Shown one piece after another: positions 317 through 33,124 of a stretch of DNA of 33,124 bases. The position numbers and the translations under genes were made by a program. The stretch's first letter is position 1; each line of letters opens with the position of its first letter. Source of the stretch: a virus; IMG/VR virus record IMGVR_UViG_3300047476_000715, positions 1-33,124 of that record. One strand, given 5' to 3'. The notes below the pieces were generated by a model. That model saw only the letters and a program-made list of their open reading frames with translations. It was not told the origin of the DNA and made no database searches.

Positions 317-851
317 TATGGTTTGGCTATATGAGTCATGCCATAGCTCTGATGCTGTTATAGAGTCTATAAAGACCGATACTGTGTATCAAACAAACGT
401 TTTAACCAGGTGGAAACGAGGAAAAGATATTCCTTATGTTATAATAGCTACTGATACAATACATGATTCCGTACAATATACCGTACATGACACAATACGC
501 ATAATGACCGATTATATGCGTACTTACGCTTATTCTGACACTATTAAAGTAGATTCTAATACCTTTGTCATCAACGACACTATAAGCCAAAATAAGATCC
601 AATCTAGGGGCTTTGAGGCTAAAATAACCGAAAAAACCATACTTACCACCATTACTAAGGCAGCTAAAGCTAAGAATACCCTTTATTTAGGCTTTAGAGG
701 CGATTTAAGCGGCTCAAATGGCTTAGAAGTACTAAGTCCTGGAATCATGCTTAATGCCAAAAATAAGGCTCTAATAGGGCTTAATGTAAATATTAATAAA
801 AATATTAATATAGTCTACTCGGGTAGTGTATATTTTAAAATAGGTAAGTAA
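270..851 (+). CDS. Membrane-anchored periplasmic protein, spanin-like candidate
   Basis: The 193-aa product has a single N-terminal membrane segment (about residues 6-21, LIIILAFFAMVWLY) followed by an extracytoplasmic region rich in Asp-Thr-Val/Ile pairs (TDTVYQT, TDTIHDSV, HDTIRI, SDTIKVD, NDTIS). The C-terminal 60 residues look beta-rich (LYLGFRGDLSG, IGLNVNINKN). It opens the lysis cassette, directly upstream of a holin-like gene (TAATG overlap at 851) and an endolysin. An anchored periplasmic protein in this position could bridge the envelope like a spanin, but there is no obvious lipoprotein partner and no strong coiled coil. The membrane topology is clear; the spanin role is an inference. 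Confidence 0.6.
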   Translation: MRAIKDYLIIILAFFAMVWLYESCHSSDAVIESIKTDTVYQTNVLTRWKRGKDIPYVIIATDTIHDSVQYTVHDTIRIMTDYMRTYAYSDTIKVDSNTFVINDTISQNKIQSRGFEAKITEKTILTTITKAAKAKNTLYLGFRGDLSGSNGLEVLSPGIMLNAKNKALIGLNVNINKNINIVYSGSVYFKIGK

Positions 852-1051
852 TGAAGAAGTTTATAAAGGATATGTTCTCAACTGGTGATGAAGTGAGCTC
901 TAAAAGAGTGGCTGGTATCTTTGCATTAGTATTCGCAATAATTGGGGTATTTACAGCGTTATTATCTCAACCTGCGTTTGAAGCTTTATTAATGTACTCA
1001 GCCACATTACTTTCAGCTAGTGTTGTAACATCAATTTTTAATAAGAAATAA
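851..1051 (+). CDS. Putative holin
   Basis: The 66-aa product has a short charged N terminus (MKKFIKDMFSTGDEVSSKR), two predicted membrane segments (about residues 22-38, GIFALVFAIIGVFTALL, and 44-62, FEALLMYSATLLSASVVTSIF) and a basic end (NKK). Size, two-span topology and position just upstream of an M15 endolysin fit a phage holin that permeabilises the inner membrane at lysis. The start overlaps the preceding stop by one base, suggesting translational coupling. The neighbour at 1062 is another small membrane protein, so which is holin and which is antiholin cannot be told from sequence. Confidence 0.65.
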   Translation: MKKFIKDMFSTGDEVSSKRVAGIFALVFAIIGVFTALLSQPAFEALLMYSATLLSASVVTSIFNKK

Positions 1052-1061
1052 CAGAATAATA

Positions 1062-1256
1062 ATGAGCAATTTTGACCAAATAGATAGCGATTTAACACCT
1101 TTGGGTGCAGTAACAATGGCTATATCATGGCTAGATATTTTAGGAGTAGTAGTATTAAATCCACTACTACAAACTATCGTTTACTTGATGACTATTGTTT
1201 GGTTAGGAATGCAGATGTATGGTTTTATTAAAAAGCAGTTTAGAAAAAAGTTCTAA
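1062..1256 (+). CDS. Small membrane protein, second holin or antiholin candidate
   Basis: The 64-aa product has one long or two short hydrophobic stretches (about residues 14-34 and 36-53, IVYLMTIVWLGMQMYGF) and a basic C-terminal tail (IKKQFRKKF), which would put the C terminus in the cytoplasm. It lies 10 bases after the holin-like gene and 11 before the endolysin. Pairs of small membrane proteins beside an endolysin are often a holin with an antiholin or pinholin. No family was recognised. Confidence 0.6.
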   Translation: MSNFDQIDSDLTPLGAVTMAISWLDILGVVVLNPLLQTIVYLMTIVWLGMQMYGFIKKQFRKKF

Positions 1257-1267
1257 TTTAGTGCATC

Positions 1268-1726
1268 ATGCAAATCACCGCACATTTTAATCTAGCAGAA
1301 TTTACTCGTAGCGAATCAGCTAAAAGACATGGTGTATCTAATCAACCAACTGCTGAACATTTAGAAAACATTAAAATACTTTGTCAAAAAGTATTAGAAC
1401 CAATCAGAATGAAGTTTGGTCCTATTAACATTTCTAGTGGATATAGGAGCAAGGTTCTTAATCATTACATAGGAGGTAGTTTAAGGTCACAGCATTGCGA
1501 AGGCAAAGCAGTAGATATAGACATGGATGGTATGGGAGATGTGCTTAATGTTGACATCTTTGAATACATAAAAAATAGTCTTGAGTTCGATCAGTTGATA
1601 TGGGAGTTTGGAAATCCTTTAAATCCTGATTGGGTTCATGTAAGCTATAATCAAGGGAATAACAGAAAACAAGTGTTGAGGGCTATTAAGGTAAACGGCA
1701 AGACTGCCTACGCACCTTACAAATAA
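1268..1726 (+). CDS. Endolysin, M15 family D-Ala-D-Ala-type peptidase
   Basis: This 152-aa single-domain enzyme is expected to cleave peptidoglycan cross-bridges or stem peptides at lysis. The M15 zinc site is visible: SQHCEGKAVDID gives the first His (about residue 76) and Asp (83), WVHVSY gives the last His (124), and LIWEF carries the probable catalytic Glu (113). SSGYRS (56-61) is the conserved upstream element. The length suits phage M15 endolysins without a wall-binding domain. It has no signal peptide, so release should depend on the holin candidates just upstream. The stop overlaps the homing endonuclease start (TAATG). Confidence 0.93.
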   Translation: MQITAHFNLAEFTRSESAKRHGVSNQPTAEHLENIKILCQKVLEPIRMKFGPINISSGYRSKVLNHYIGGSLRSQHCEGKAVDIDMDGMGDVLNVDIFEYIKNSLEFDQLIWEFGNPLNPDWVHVSYNQGNNRKQVLRAIKVNGKTAYAPYK

Positions 1727-7957: not shown

Positions 7958-8170
7958 CTATTTATCTCTAACTATTCTAAAAATTACATCCCTATTTTTA
8001 TGTTTAAATCTACGCTTTAATAACGGACTAAGTGACTTTTTTATTGCATCTTGGGTAATATTTGTGTTCCTAGAAGCATGAGCCAATGATTTAAACAATA
8101 TTTCAGACTTATCGTCAACATAAATCATCCTCACTGGTACTGAGTTCTCTAATCCTGCAATCTCCATCAT
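7958..8170 (-). CDS. Small NUMOD1-like DNA-binding protein
   Basis: In the 70-aa product, IYVDDKSEILFKSLAHASRN, then TNITQDAIKKSLSP and KNRDVIFRIV. The S-L..A.....I....I...L spacing parallels the NUMOD1 modules at the ends of the two homing endonucleases in this genome (SVSEAAKLYNIKQQTLSSKL; SIKEASEKENINYSTLKAML). A stand-alone DNA-binding module is therefore likely. The start (MM, at 8170 or 8167) overlaps the preceding stop in an ATGA arrangement. Confidence 0.6.
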   Translation of the reverse strand: MMEIAGLENSVPVRMIYVDDKSEILFKSLAHASRNTNITQDAIKKSLSPLLKRRFKHKNRDVIFRIVRDK

Positions 8171-8283
8171 ATATTCCTAAATTTACTAATTATTAATGCT
8201 GTTAAATAGATTGTTATTGCTAATGGAACTGAAATGAACGTAAAGAATAGCAGTTCATAGATAAATATTAGTATTTCTTTCAT
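8167..8283 (-). CDS. Tiny membrane protein (38 aa)
   Basis: A 38-codon frame, MKEILIFIYELLFFTFISVP then LAITIYLTALIISKF, is hydrophobic almost throughout and would span the membrane once or twice, ending basic. Its TGA overlaps the next start (ATGA), a strong sign that it is translated. No family was recognised. It belongs to a series of tiny membrane proteins in this operon. Confidence 0.6.
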   Translation of the reverse strand: MKEILIFIYELLFFTFISVPLAITIYLTALIISKFRNI

Positions 8284-8493: not shown

Positions 8494-8628
8494 TTAATCT
8501 TTTGTGTCTAGTTTATTATAAATAGCATAAGTCATAAACAATATAGCTTCTAATAATCTACCTTTAAAGGCAAAGTATAATGAAATGCTTGAACATACTA
8601 TAGCTGCTATTAAAGAAAATAATTTCAT
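8494..8628 (-). CDS. Tiny membrane protein (44 aa)
   Basis: A 44-codon frame begins MKLFSLIAAIVCSSISLYFA and continues FKGRLLEAILFMTYAIY, with two short membrane segments separated by FKGR, and ends in a charged tail (NKLDTKD). It lies 3 bases upstream of the next gene and right after the terminator at 8637-8700, so it may head the transcript below that terminator. No family was recognised. Confidence 0.6.
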   Translation of the reverse strand: MKLFSLIAAIVCSSISLYFAFKGRLLEAILFMTYAIYNKLDTKD

Positions 8629-10850: not shown

Positions 10851-11339
10851 CTATTTGTAACGTAAAGTTGTTTTATTTTTATTCTGTCCGTTTAACATTG
10901 CTTTTAATGTTGAATAATTTATGTTTTCTTTTTCAGATGCTTCTTTGATAGATCCATAAAATACATTATTTTCCATGTTAATTATTGATCTATTATGTAT
11001 TGTAGAAAATATCTTTCTACATTTATCACTTAAACCAATAGCCCAAGCGTGTACAGTATTCTCACTTGCTGTTACCCATTCAAGGTTTTCTAATCTATTA
11101 TCAGATTTGATACCATTAATATGATTTACTTGGGGTTTTTTATCAGGGTTTGGTATAAAAGATATGGCTAAAAGTCTATGTATAGATATATTTTTCTTCT
11201 TACCACTTTTGCATAATACAACCATTACATAACCATCCTTGTCTAAGCGTGTTTTTAAAAATATGTTTTTTCTTTTGCTAAATACTTGTCCTTTAGTATT
11301 TATAGTGTAATCATCAAATCCTTCAATGTCTTTTTCCAT
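10851..11339 (-). CDS. Free-standing HNH homing endonuclease with NUMOD4 and NUMOD1
   Basis: The 162-aa product shows a NUMOD4-like start (IEGFDDYTINTKGQVFSKRK), IHRLLAISFIPNP, then the HNH core VNHINGIKSDNRLENLEWVT (71-90, His near 73), followed by ASENTVHAW. Residues about 119-150 form a C-terminal NUMOD1 DNA-binding module (NNVFYGSIKEASEKENINYS). It is likely to nick or cut a neighbouring allele and spread by repair. It sits between two small genes with a 2-base gap upstream and 37 downstream, neither of which is visibly interrupted. Confidence 0.9.
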   Translation of the reverse strand: MEKDIEGFDDYTINTKGQVFSKRKNIFLKTRLDKDGYVMVVLCKSGKKKNISIHRLLAISFIPNPDKKPQVNHINGIKSDNRLENLEWVTASENTVHAWAIGLSDKCRKIFSTIHNRSIINMENNVFYGSIKEASEKENINYSTLKAMLNGQNKNKTTLRYK

Positions 11340-12840: not shown

Positions 12841-13395
12841 TTAATCTCTTGTAATATCTACAGGCATAAGAATACCGAAAGAAAGGTTTTCAGCATTTCT
12901 AACCTGTATTGTTTTAAGTCTACCAAAAAAGGTATAAATATACTTGTTTTCACTACCTCCCAATGCTTCACAAAGTGTAGACAACAAAGAGGGATTAAAA
13001 CTAATCGTGTCCAGTGCTTCAGTAGGTTGTTCACTTGAATAAATAACACTTTCACAGTCAGGGAAACGCCCAACATGCTGAAATTCTGGTTCGGTTAATA
13101 CCTTAATTGTTCCCAACTTGTTTCCCTTTATGTCGGTAGCTTCTAAATAATTACCAGCATTTAATAAAAAACTAGATCCATTGTAAAATTTATTTTTTTG
13201 CCACTCTTTGCCATCTATGTAAAAATGGTAGTCATCTTTGTTGAGTTCGCTATCTTTCCCAAACAGTTCACAAAGTGGAACTTTTGCTAATATGTGGCAA
13301 TTAGTAGCGTATGCGAACCCTAGTTTTATTTGAATATACCCTAAATGAGGTCTAATTTTGTTTTTTTGTTCAGTTGCTAAATGTAATTTTTTCAT
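12841..13395 (-). CDS. Sliding clamp-like (beta-clamp-fold) protein, putative
   Basis: In the 184-aa product, ATNCHILAKVPLCELFG (about 29-46) resembles the DnaN strand-turn with a T.H.L..V. pattern, then IDGKEWQKNKFY, FPDCESVI, ISFNPSLLSTLCEALGGSEN and a final segment SFGILMPV (about 172-179), like the MP.R-type end of beta clamps. At 184 aa it is about half of bacterial DnaN. Such proteins recur in Bacteroidota phages; a processivity-clamp or clamp-decoy role is inferred from the pattern. No phage DNA polymerase was found here. Followed by the terminator at 12775-12835. Confidence 0.55.
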   Translation of the reverse strand: MKKLHLATEQKNKIRPHLGYIQIKLGFAYATNCHILAKVPLCELFGKDSELNKDDYHFYIDGKEWQKNKFYNGSSFLLNAGNYLEATDIKGNKLGTIKVLTEPEFQHVGRFPDCESVIYSSEQPTEALDTISFNPSLLSTLCEALGGSENKYIYTFFGRLKTIQVRNAENLSFGILMPVDITRD

Positions 13396-13419: not shown

Positions 13420-13695
13420 TTAATTGTTTTGATCGTCGATTAAGTGTTGGGCAATTTCGTACCAGTTTACTTCAGATACGAAAGCAAGAGCGTAATCTAG
13501 TACCAAAGTACTTTGCACTGTCACATCCTCCAAAGTTTCCATAACGTATTGTTGACACTCTTTAGATAATTGATAAGGATCGCTTTCGTACTTGTTTGGG
13601 TTAAAATCATCGAACCACTCTAAAGCAATTCGCCATGTAGCGTAATTTGTCCAACCGTTGTAAGTTGTTATTTCTTGTTGTGTTGTTTGTGTCAT
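13420..13695 (-). CDS. Conserved phage protein with NGWTNYATW motif
   Basis: The 91-aa product begins with a polar segment (MTQTTQQEITTY), followed by NGWTNYATWRIALEWFDD, a motif shared by many small phage proteins of unknown function (G(W/Y)TN(Y/W)xTW; DUF7249-like, from memory). The rest is acidic and helical (YQLSKECQQYVMETLEDV, LALDYALAFVSEVNWYEI-like, EIAQHLIDD). Its gene is the first full-length one after the micro-membrane cassette. The role is unknown, and the widespread occurrence suggests an early host-interaction or replication function. Confidence 0.65.
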   Translation of the reverse strand: MTQTTQQEITTYNGWTNYATWRIALEWFDDFNPNKYESDPYQLSKECQQYVMETLEDVTVQSTLVLDYALAFVSEVNWYEIAQHLIDDQNN

Positions 13696-13718: not shown

Positions 13719-13823
13719 TTATTTGTTTGTGATTTCTTGCCAGATTGTTTTTGCTAATGTGTAGATAAGAACCGAACCGATAAGTACTAATGTCGCTTCG
13801 ATTATTGTTATTGATTGTCCCAT
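13719..13823 (-). CDS. Micro-membrane protein 1 (34 aa)
   Basis: A 34-codon frame starts MGQSITIIEATLVLIGSVLI and ends TIWQEITNK, with one membrane span (about 5-24). It is one of four consecutive tiny single-span genes (13719-14160) spaced 1 to 11 bases apart. The C terminus ITNK equals that of the gene at 14056. It is the last gene of the cassette, 23 bases from the next full-length gene. No family was recognised. Confidence 0.6.
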   Translation of the reverse strand: MGQSITIIEATLVLIGSVLIYTLAKTIWQEITNK

Positions 13824-13824
13824 G

Positions 13825-13935
13825 TTATTTGAATTTAGATATTAGATAATTAATTACTAATCTAGCCATGTTTGACAAGATAATAACGAATAAAACTAAT
13901 TGAGCAATGAAAAGGATTGTTGATAATGTTTGCAT
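13825..13935 (-). CDS. Micro-membrane protein 2 (36 aa)
   Basis: The 36-codon frame starts MQTLSTILFIAQLVLFVIIL and continues SNMARLVINYLISKFK. It has a single span (about 5-21) and a basic end. Its pattern M(Q/N)T..TI...AQL..F...L.N..RL is shared with the gene at 14056, so the two are probably paralogs created by duplication. The gap to the gene at 13719 is one base. Confidence 0.6.
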   Translation of the reverse strand: MQTLSTILFIAQLVLFVIILSNMARLVINYLISKFK

Positions 13936-13945
13936 GGTTTAAGGT

Positions 13946-14044
13946 TTAAAAGGTTATAAAGTGAATTGATAATTCAAATAATATAGCAATACTAAATGGA
14001 ATTAATAAAGCTAAAATCGTGTAATCTTTGTTAGTTTGTTTCAT
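13946..14044 (-). CDS. Micro-membrane protein 3 (32 aa)
   Basis: The 32-codon frame starts MKQTNKDYTILALLIPFSIA and ends ILFELSIHFITF. One or two weak spans; no similarity to the neighbouring micro-genes was seen beyond size and hydrophobicity. It lies 10 bases upstream of micro-protein 2 and 11 bases after micro-protein 4. The leader AACAAATAAATCAAAACACA before the ATG is of the usual A/C-rich type. Confidence 0.55.
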   Translation of the reverse strand: MKQTNKDYTILALLIPFSIAILFELSIHFITF

Positions 14045-14055
14045 TGTGTTTTGAT

Positions 14056-14160
14056 TTATTTGTTTGTTATTACTGAGTGAATTAATCTAACAACGTTTAC
14101 TAAAAATGCTGTAAAGATTGTTAATTGTGCTACCATTACGATTGTGTTAAATGTGTTCAT
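14056..14160 (-). CDS. Micro-membrane protein 4 (34 aa)
   Basis: The 34-codon frame starts MNTFNTIVMVAQLTIFTAFL and ends VNVVRLIHSVITNK. It is the first gene of the early operon, with a single span (about 6-24). It shares the pattern MxT..TI...AQL..F...L.N..RL with micro-protein 2, and its end ITNK with micro-protein 1. The leader AAACACAATAAAACGCAACA and a TATCTTTG box 40 bases upstream support expression. Confidence 0.6.
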   Translation of the reverse strand: MNTFNTIVMVAQLTIFTAFLVNVVRLIHSVITNK

Positions 14161-14199
14161 GTTGTTGCGTTTTATTGTGTTTTTGTTTGTTTGATAAAT

Positions 14200-14207
14200 C
14201 AAAGATA
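14200..14207 (-). promoter_or_regulatory. Candidate early promoter (-7 box TATCTTTG)
   Basis: The minus strand reads TATCTTTG, an exact TAnnTTTG match, 40 bases upstream of the first minus gene. A TTTTTG at 14230-14235 on the same strand lies 22 bases upstream and could serve as the -33 element. It is the best candidate for driving the early operon. Confidence 0.55.
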
Positions 14208-14293
14208 ATAACTAAATCAATACAAAGTTCAAAAATATTAAAATATTTTAAAATTATTTTTTAGGTATTTATTAGTGTTGTAAGATTAAATTA

Positions 14294-14421
14294 ATAGTAT
14301 TTAATTATCCAATGTTTAATATCTAATTTAATATTGAATATAATATACTATATTAATATAGTAAATTAATTAGTAATTGAATTACTTTTACTATTATAGT
14401 AGTAGTGTATAATAATACTAT
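14294..14421. promoter_or_regulatory. AT-rich operator-like cluster with TACTAT palindromes
   Basis: TACTAT occurs in both orientations six times within 128 bases: ATAGTA at 14294, 14358 and 14396, TACTAT at 14346, 14389 and 14416. The copies at 14346 and 14358 form the perfect 18-base palindrome TACTATATTAATATAGTA (14346-14363), and those at 14389 and 14396 form TACTAT-T-ATAGTA. The region is almost only A and T. It lies between the early and late promoters and may be an operator for both, or an origin unwinding element. Confidence 0.6.
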
Positions 14422-32740: not shown

Positions 32741-33091
32741 ATGACAGAATACAAATGGATAATTAACCAAATGAACTGCGTTCCACAAGAGGGGCAATTA
32801 ATTGATGTAGTAAGTGTAGTGCATTGGGTAAGGGAAGCGACTAAATACGTTGGTGCAGAACCTATCGTGGTTTCAGTTTACGGCACAATGGCTTGTCAAA
32901 CTCCAAGTGCAACAGACTTTACGGCATACCCAGATTTGACCTATGAGCAAGTTTGTGGCTGGTTAGACGCAGGATTAGATGTGGCTTCTTTAGATGCTAA
33001 TTTAGATGCTCAAATAGAGAACATAATCAATCCGCCTATTATCACTTTGCCTTTACCTTGGGCTAACCCTACTCCTAATGAGAGCAATTAA
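32741..33091 (+). CDS. Small tail-fibre-associated phage protein, intact copy
   Basis: The 116-aa product starts MTEYKWIINQMNCVPQEGQL and has IDVVSVVHWVREATKYVG, VVSVYGTMACQTP, FTAYPDLTYEQVCGWLDAGL and the Pro-rich end NPPIITLPLPWANPTP. The family is widespread next to phage tail fibres (DUF7936-like, from memory). It starts 1 base after the fibre gene. The window-start copy differs in 16 bases; compare residues GLDVASLDANLD here. A fibre-associated or accessory role is inferred from position. Confidence 0.85.
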   Translation: MTEYKWIINQMNCVPQEGQLIDVVSVVHWVREATKYVGAEPIVVSVYGTMACQTPSATDFTAYPDLTYEQVCGWLDAGLDVASLDANLDAQIENIINPPIITLPLPWANPTPNESN

Positions 33092-33124
33092 AGACTACTT
33101 AATTATCATTCTAGCGTTCTTTGC
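32809..33124. repeat. Right copy of the imperfect terminal direct repeat
   Basis: Matches 1-316 without gaps (300 of 316 identical). The final 127 bases, 32998-33124, are fully identical to 190-316. With one copy removed, the genome would be 32,808 bases. Confidence 0.95.
33078..33124 (+). CDS. Start of the spanin-like gene, 3'-truncated by the window edge
   Basis: The first 15 codons (MRAIKDYLIIILAFF) are identical to those at 270-314 of the left end, overlapping the preceding stop by 14 bases in the same way. It is the same gene seen again in the terminal overlap, not a second gene. Confidence 0.85.
   Translation, partial: MRAIKDYLIIILAFF

What the first reader, a model, noticed from the sequence alone, without database searches (positions are those of the whole stretch)
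13719..14160. Cassette of four tandem micro-membrane proteins at the promoter end of the early operon
Four consecutive frames of 34, 36, 32 and 34 codons, each with a membrane segment and an A/C-rich leader, are packed with gaps of 1, 10 and 11 bases. The second and fourth share a pattern (M.T..TI...AQL..F...L.N..RL), and the first and fourth share the end ITNK, so duplication is likely. They would be the first phage products made. Together with the tiny genes at 8167 and 8494, this is a large investment in sub-50-residue membrane proteins, which may target the host envelope or block superinfection.
Basis: partly seen in the sequence, partly recalled or inferred. Interest (0 to 1): 0.75.

Follow-up and report, generated by a model that had tools for sequence, protein, structure and literature searches.

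The report
Conserved micro-membrane gene pair in phages
The four tiny membrane-protein genes are real; two of them form a gene pair found in about 120 related, uncultured Bacteroidota-type phages, sit next to an early promoter and match no known family, so they probably act on the host membrane at the start of infection, although how is not shown.

Summary
Four minus-strand ORFs of 34, 32, 36 and 34 codons (s1-s4, in transcription order) lie at 14160-13719 with gaps of 11, 10 and 1 bases, each with one hydrophobic segment. No shuffle in 5,000 gave more than two such ORFs. The last two, here called A (s3) and B (s4), form a two-gene pair: 59 of 59 regions upstream of the small terminase (58 relatives plus the window) have B and 54 have A. 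Selection is strongly purifying: pN/pS 0.28 (A) and 0.29 (B), p<1e-34. Starts carry the A(-3), A(-6), A(-12) signature of Bacteroidota translation, and a TATCTTT promoter box lies 27-49 nt before the first member in 71 of 124 units. s1 is an A paralogue; s2 is an accessory gene with one clear homologue. Membrane halves of B are swapped between phages while A and B's tail stay the same. No Pfam or PHROG family matches. A lysis role is unlikely: endolysin and holin-like genes are elsewhere, in late orientation. Most likely they are early inner-membrane effectors; superinfection exclusion and host-enzyme modulation remain inferences.

The parts
14056..14160 (-). s1, 34 aa, MNTFNTIVMVAQLTIFTAFLVNVVRLIHSVITNK; extra copy of family A
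   Evidence: A-family HMM E=1.2e-16; homologue in L004, pN/pS 0.41 for that pair; two A copies also in L140
13946..14044 (-). s2, 32 aa, accessory single-pass membrane microprotein
   Evidence: one clear homologue, L160 MKNTNKRDYTLLALSIPFTIAVLFEVAIHFINL, at the same place 10 nt before A (E=3e-13; pN/pS 0.36)
13825..13935 (-). s3, 36 aa, family A, first gene of the conserved pair
   Evidence: 54 of 59 regions have family A; pN/pS 0.28, p=2e-39; single helix 2-35, pLDDT 93
13719..13823 (-). s4, 34 aa, family B, second gene of the conserved pair, with the K-T-I-W-Q-E tail
   Evidence: 59 of 59 regions have family B; pN/pS 0.29, p=1e-35; single helix 7-33, pLDDT 90
14200..14226 (-). predicted early promoter, TTTG-N15-TATCTTTG, less than 50 nt before the s1 ATG
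   Evidence: only match in the window, 0.13 expected by chance; same box 27-49 nt before the first A/B gene in 71 of 124 units
14161..14199 (-). A/C-rich stretch between promoter box and s1, including the predicted short 5' leader
   Evidence: A at -3, -6 and -12/-13 before A and B starts, as in F. johnsoniae
13420..13695 (-). DUF7249 protein (91 aa), next gene in the operon
   Evidence: PF23907, E=1.8e-7
12841..13395 (-). 184-aa protein with a weak RusA-like resolvase match
   Evidence: phrog_3007, E=2.6e-7

Best explanation
The cassette encodes early inner-membrane effectors of a probably virulent Bacteroidota phage. A short leader brings the small genes into translation first, A and B one right after the other. 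Each is one helix, inserted with a very short N-terminus outside and a K/R-bearing amphipathic C-terminus at the cytoplasmic face. A and B most likely work together in the membrane, directly or on the same target. The constant B tail (K-T-I-W-Q-E) would do the common job, and the swapped membrane half of B would set which membrane partner is recognised. The most likely purpose is to change the newly infected cell's inner membrane so that competing phages cannot deliver their DNA (superinfection exclusion), with modulation of a host membrane enzyme as the close alternative. s1 and s2 are variable extra members. Shown: coding, conservation, pairing, promoter-box position, mosaic exchange. Inferred: topology, timing of expression, physical partnership, target, exclusion.
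For: Coding: pN/pS 0.28 and 0.29 over 26 and 27 disjoint pairs, and the start-site signature. B is present in every one of 59 regions fetched by neighbouring genes, not by B itself, so it matters to this clade. A and B are nearly always adjacent, from 20 nt overlap to 7 nt gap, and their amino-acid distances correlate with each other (Spearman 0.64) but hardly with TerL (0.14 and 0.23), so they travel together. The promoter box lies 27-49 nt upstream in 71 of 124 units. Each is a continuous helix, with the charge balance favouring C-in in 85-88% of sequences. Fast allelic replacement: in pairs with TerL pS 0.02-0.25, median pS is 0.67 (A) and 0.65 (B) against 0.12-0.27 for backbone genes. Identical A proteins are followed by B of different membrane class, and B of different class can share tail and 30-nt 3' flank. 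Such exchange fits a specificity or arms-race role.
Against: No experiment and no homologue of known function. The neighbouring DUF7249 and DnaA-C-like genes are just as exchanged, so the diversity belongs to the whole promoter-proximal segment and is not specific to A/B. Exclusion proteins are better known from prophages, and no integrase was seen here. Helix contact between A and B was not testable.
Confidence: 0.4

Rival explanations
1. A and B are small subunits or inhibitors of a host membrane enzyme or division/envelope complex, slowing or redirecting the host rather than excluding phages.
For: Early position; single-pass peptides with a conserved interface tail. A precedent is Gp11 of S. 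aureus phage PhiNM1, an early 53-aa membrane protein that binds MurG and DivIC and blocks division (PMC11237401).
Against: An essential host target would favour sequence stability, whereas membrane halves of B are swapped among near-identical phages. No sequence relation to a known modulator.
Confidence: 0.3
2. They anchor or organise phage DNA replication at the membrane.
For: Same operon as a DnaB-type helicase and a DnaA-C-like HTH protein; cytoplasmic amphipathic tails.
Against: DnaB belongs to the conserved backbone while A/B belong to the exchanged segment; tails are about ten residues.
Confidence: 0.1
3. They are membrane-active toxin-like peptides of the type I toxin sort that depolarise the host.
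For: Size and hydrophobic single-helix build resemble such peptides (own knowledge).
Against: Strong early production would harm the phage's own factory; no antitoxin gene was seen, though no dedicated search for an antisense RNA was made.
Confidence: 0.08
4. They are a holin/antiholin or pinholin pair for lysis.
For: Two adjacent short hydrophobic genes; a few members give weak hits to holin or Hol-Tox models (E 0.05-0.08).
Against: The endolysin (1268-1726, phrog_894, E=1e-36) and two holin-like membrane ORFs just before it (851-1051, 1062-1256) lie in late orientation, on the other strand, and both holin-like ORFs are conserved.
Confidence: 0.07
5. Leader peptides or a regulatory RNA, with no protein function.
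For: First genes after a promoter with a short leader.
Against: Amino-acid-level purifying selection; conserved hydrophobic cores in 92 A and 105 B sequences.
Confidence: 0.02

Closest known systems
Gp11 of Staphylococcus phage PhiNM1 (53 aa)
   Same: early gene, very small membrane protein, acts on host envelope proteins
   Different: two predicted helices against one, Gram-positive host, single gene; no sequence comparison was run
Phage superinfection-exclusion membrane proteins (T4 Imm/Sp, P22 SieA)
   Same: inner-membrane phage products that stop incoming DNA; T4 also uses a two-gene set (own knowledge; P22 SieA abstract)
   Different: the known ones named here are larger (own knowledge); exclusion not tested here
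Catalogued phage small genes (over 2 million, review PMC11323111)
   Same: short, uncharacterised phage genes
   Different: here a defined two-gene pair with promoter box, selection test and exchange pattern; whether the pair is already a cluster in those catalogues was not tested
Phage holins (including small class and Hol-Tox)
   Same: small, hydrophobic
   Different: place and orientation differ; lysis genes are elsewhere

Membership tests
Phage holin/antiholin | located with endolysin, late orientation | tested here: not met
   endolysin at 1268-1726 + strand; cassette on - strand at the head of the replication operon
Phage holin/antiholin | match to a holin family model | tested here: not met
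   no match for the window proteins; best for any member E 0.05-0.08
Superinfection-exclusion protein | inner-membrane location | tested here: inconclusive
   one strongly hydrophobic helix with C-in charge bias; not localised by experiment
Superinfection-exclusion protein | expressed early in infection (or from a prophage) | tested here: inconclusive
   conserved promoter box directly upstream of the replication operon; no expression data
Superinfection-exclusion protein | blocks a second phage | not testable with these tools
   needs plating or DNA-entry assay
Superinfection-exclusion protein | sequence homology to Imm, Sie or similar | tested here: inconclusive
   no Pfam or PHROG match, but such families are diverse and fast-evolving
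Gp11-like early host inhibitor | growth arrest and binding of MurG/DivIC | not testable with these tools
   expression experiment needed
Type I toxin | antisense RNA antitoxin | not tested
   no dedicated search made

The most novel reading that the evidence does not exclude
A and B form a two-part membrane exclusion system of virulent phages built from helices of about 35 residues, in which the interchangeable membrane half of B sets specificity and the constant tail is the effector. It would be among the smallest heteromeric immunity systems, with type switching by module exchange.
Probability: 0.2. Interest if true: 0.8.

Novelty: new member of a known kind. Interest (0 to 1): 0.55.

Why it matters
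Genes this short are usually not called or not named, yet B was present in every one of the 59 regions that could be examined and A in 54 of them. A conserved pair of 30-40-residue membrane proteins, first in line after an early promoter, is a compact and testable model for how phages change the host membrane in the first minutes, and the natural exchange of B's membrane half offers ready-made natural variants for finding what it recognises.

Tried and rejected
TerL searches of cellular genomes found no relative, so the host is inferred only. DNA similarity to named phages gave only homing-endonuclease matches, and DUF7249 gave none. Distant DUF7249 phages (L021-L061) have no A/B. A strict TAnnTTTG promoter search was only mildly enriched (33 of 124 units against 18% of shuffles), so the box was redefined from the relatives as TATCTTT[A/G]; because it was chosen after looking, its position count is descriptive. 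ITNK sharing between s1 and s4 was rejected as evidence of duplication. Folds are single helices, so no fold search was run.

Full report
Observation. On the minus strand the four frames are, in transcription order, s1 14160-14056, s2 14044-13946, s3 13935-13825 and s4 13823-13719, with gaps of 11, 10 and 1 bases. All have a single hydrophobic core; in 5,000 shuffles of the region under a dinucleotide model none held more than two ORFs of this kind, while the real sequence holds four.

Where it lies. The window is a virus record from IMG/VR. Its two ends share 316 bases at 300 identities, so it is probably a nearly complete or circular genome of about 32.8 kb. Rightward genes encode packaging, head and tail; leftward genes encode DUF7249, a weakly RusA-like protein, a DnaA-C-like HTH protein and a DnaB helicase. 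No integrase was seen among the proteins scanned, so a virulent life is likely but not proven. Named phages are distant: TerL at most about 35% identical to phages of Bacteroides and Parabacteroides, capsid 35% to Flavobacterium phage 11b and Cellulophaga phage phi10:1. With the translation signals below, this points to a Bacteroidota host.

Relatives. Scans with DUF7249 and TerL brought 139 loci. Taking every distinct locus with the small terminase and at least 1,300 bases beyond it gave 59 regions, including the window: all 59 encode family B (s4) and 54 encode family A (s3 or s1 type). These loci were chosen by other genes, so the prevalence is not circular. Two DNA-pattern scans added more; 115 of 119 further loci with a match have A then B and 4 have B alone (some are different pieces of contigs already counted). 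After removing duplicates there are 124 distinct units. A and B overlap by up to 20 nt or are at most 7 nt apart when adjacent. In L004, which has the s1 type of A, another short ORF lies between. Where A is missing, other ORFs or a gap stand in its place.

Selection and translation. Between disjoint closest pairs, A has 235.9 nonsynonymous changes in 2,226 sites against 224.1 synonymous in 594 (pN/pS 0.28, p=2.3e-39), and B 0.29 (p=1e-35). Before A starts, adenine is at -3 in 84%, -6 in 75%, -12 in 94%; before B starts in 90%, 90% and 89%. Ribosome profiling of Flavobacterium johnsoniae found adenines at -3, -6, -12 and -13 to promote initiation (PMC6847099).

Promoter. TTTG-N15-TATCTTT occurs once in the window, just before s1, and the same arrangement is visible in relatives. 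In 71 of 124 units the TATCTTT[A/G] box lies 27-49 nt before the first A/B gene; in 32 it lies farther away, with other ORFs between where this was looked at. The box was defined after inspection, so this is a description and not a test.

s1 and s2. s1 is an A paralogue (E=1.2e-16); an s1-type copy occurs in L004, and L140 has two A copies. s2 has one clear homologue, in L160, at the same place 10 nt before A, where another 33-aa membrane ORF precedes it: L160 thus also carries four membrane microgenes in a row, as does L149 with a different pair. The slot between promoter and A-B therefore receives different small membrane genes in different phages.

Exchange. In pairs with nearly the same TerL (pS 0.02-0.25) median pS is 0.12-0.27 for TerL, TerS, portal and early backbone genes (9413, 8711, the 38-aa gene at 8167), but 0.67 for A, 0.65 for B, 0.67 for DUF7249 and 0.68 for the DnaA-C-like gene. 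The promoter-proximal segment as a whole is thus replaced often, and A-B is its constant member at the promoter end. B has two common membrane classes. Three A proteins occur with both classes, and pairs such as L198 and L227 share tail and 30-nt 3' flank while their membrane halves are 47% identical. This is best read as recombination on both sides of the membrane half.

Structure. A and B are each predicted as one helix (2-35 and 7-33, mean pLDDT 93 and 90). For single helices such confidence says little beyond helicity. Charge balance favours a C-terminus inside in 85% of A and 88% of B sequences; this is a rule of thumb, not a measurement.

Function. Lysis is unlikely: the endolysin and two holin-like ORFs lie together in late orientation. 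No member matches a known family convincingly. What remains is an early action at the inner membrane. Exclusion of competing phages is preferred because of early position, membrane site, clade-wide retention and exchange of the membrane half. Modulation of a host membrane enzyme is nearly as likely, with Gp11 of PhiNM1 as a precedent. The weak point is that the exchange is shared by neighbouring genes.

Noticed in passing
8167-8283 (- strand): 38-aa membrane ORF (MKEILIFIYELLFF...) conserved in 31 distinct related sequences; a real gene in the conserved part of the early operon.
   Followed up: partly
8494-8628 (- strand): 44-aa membrane ORF conserved in five distinct relatives at 68-86% identity.
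   Followed up: partly
851-1256 (+ strand): Two holin-like membrane ORFs (66 and 64 aa) directly before the endolysin, conserved in L147 and L240.
   Followed up: partly
1-316 and 32809-33124: The contig ends share 316 bases with 300 identities; not an exact repeat, so a variant-containing circular assembly or a true near-repeat.
   Followed up: no
14341-14368: AT-rich 28-nt palindrome (93% self-complementary match) in the divergent intergenic region; similar ACTATATTAATATAGTA stretches stand before the promoter in several relatives.
   Followed up: no
10851-11339 and 1726-2292: Two homing-endonuclease-type genes (HNH/NUMOD4; phrog_314), the second directly after the endolysin.
   Followed up: no
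L149 and L160, upstream of A: Other phages carry different extra membrane microgenes (31, 33 and 33 aa) in the slot before A-B, giving independent four-gene cassettes.
   Followed up: partly
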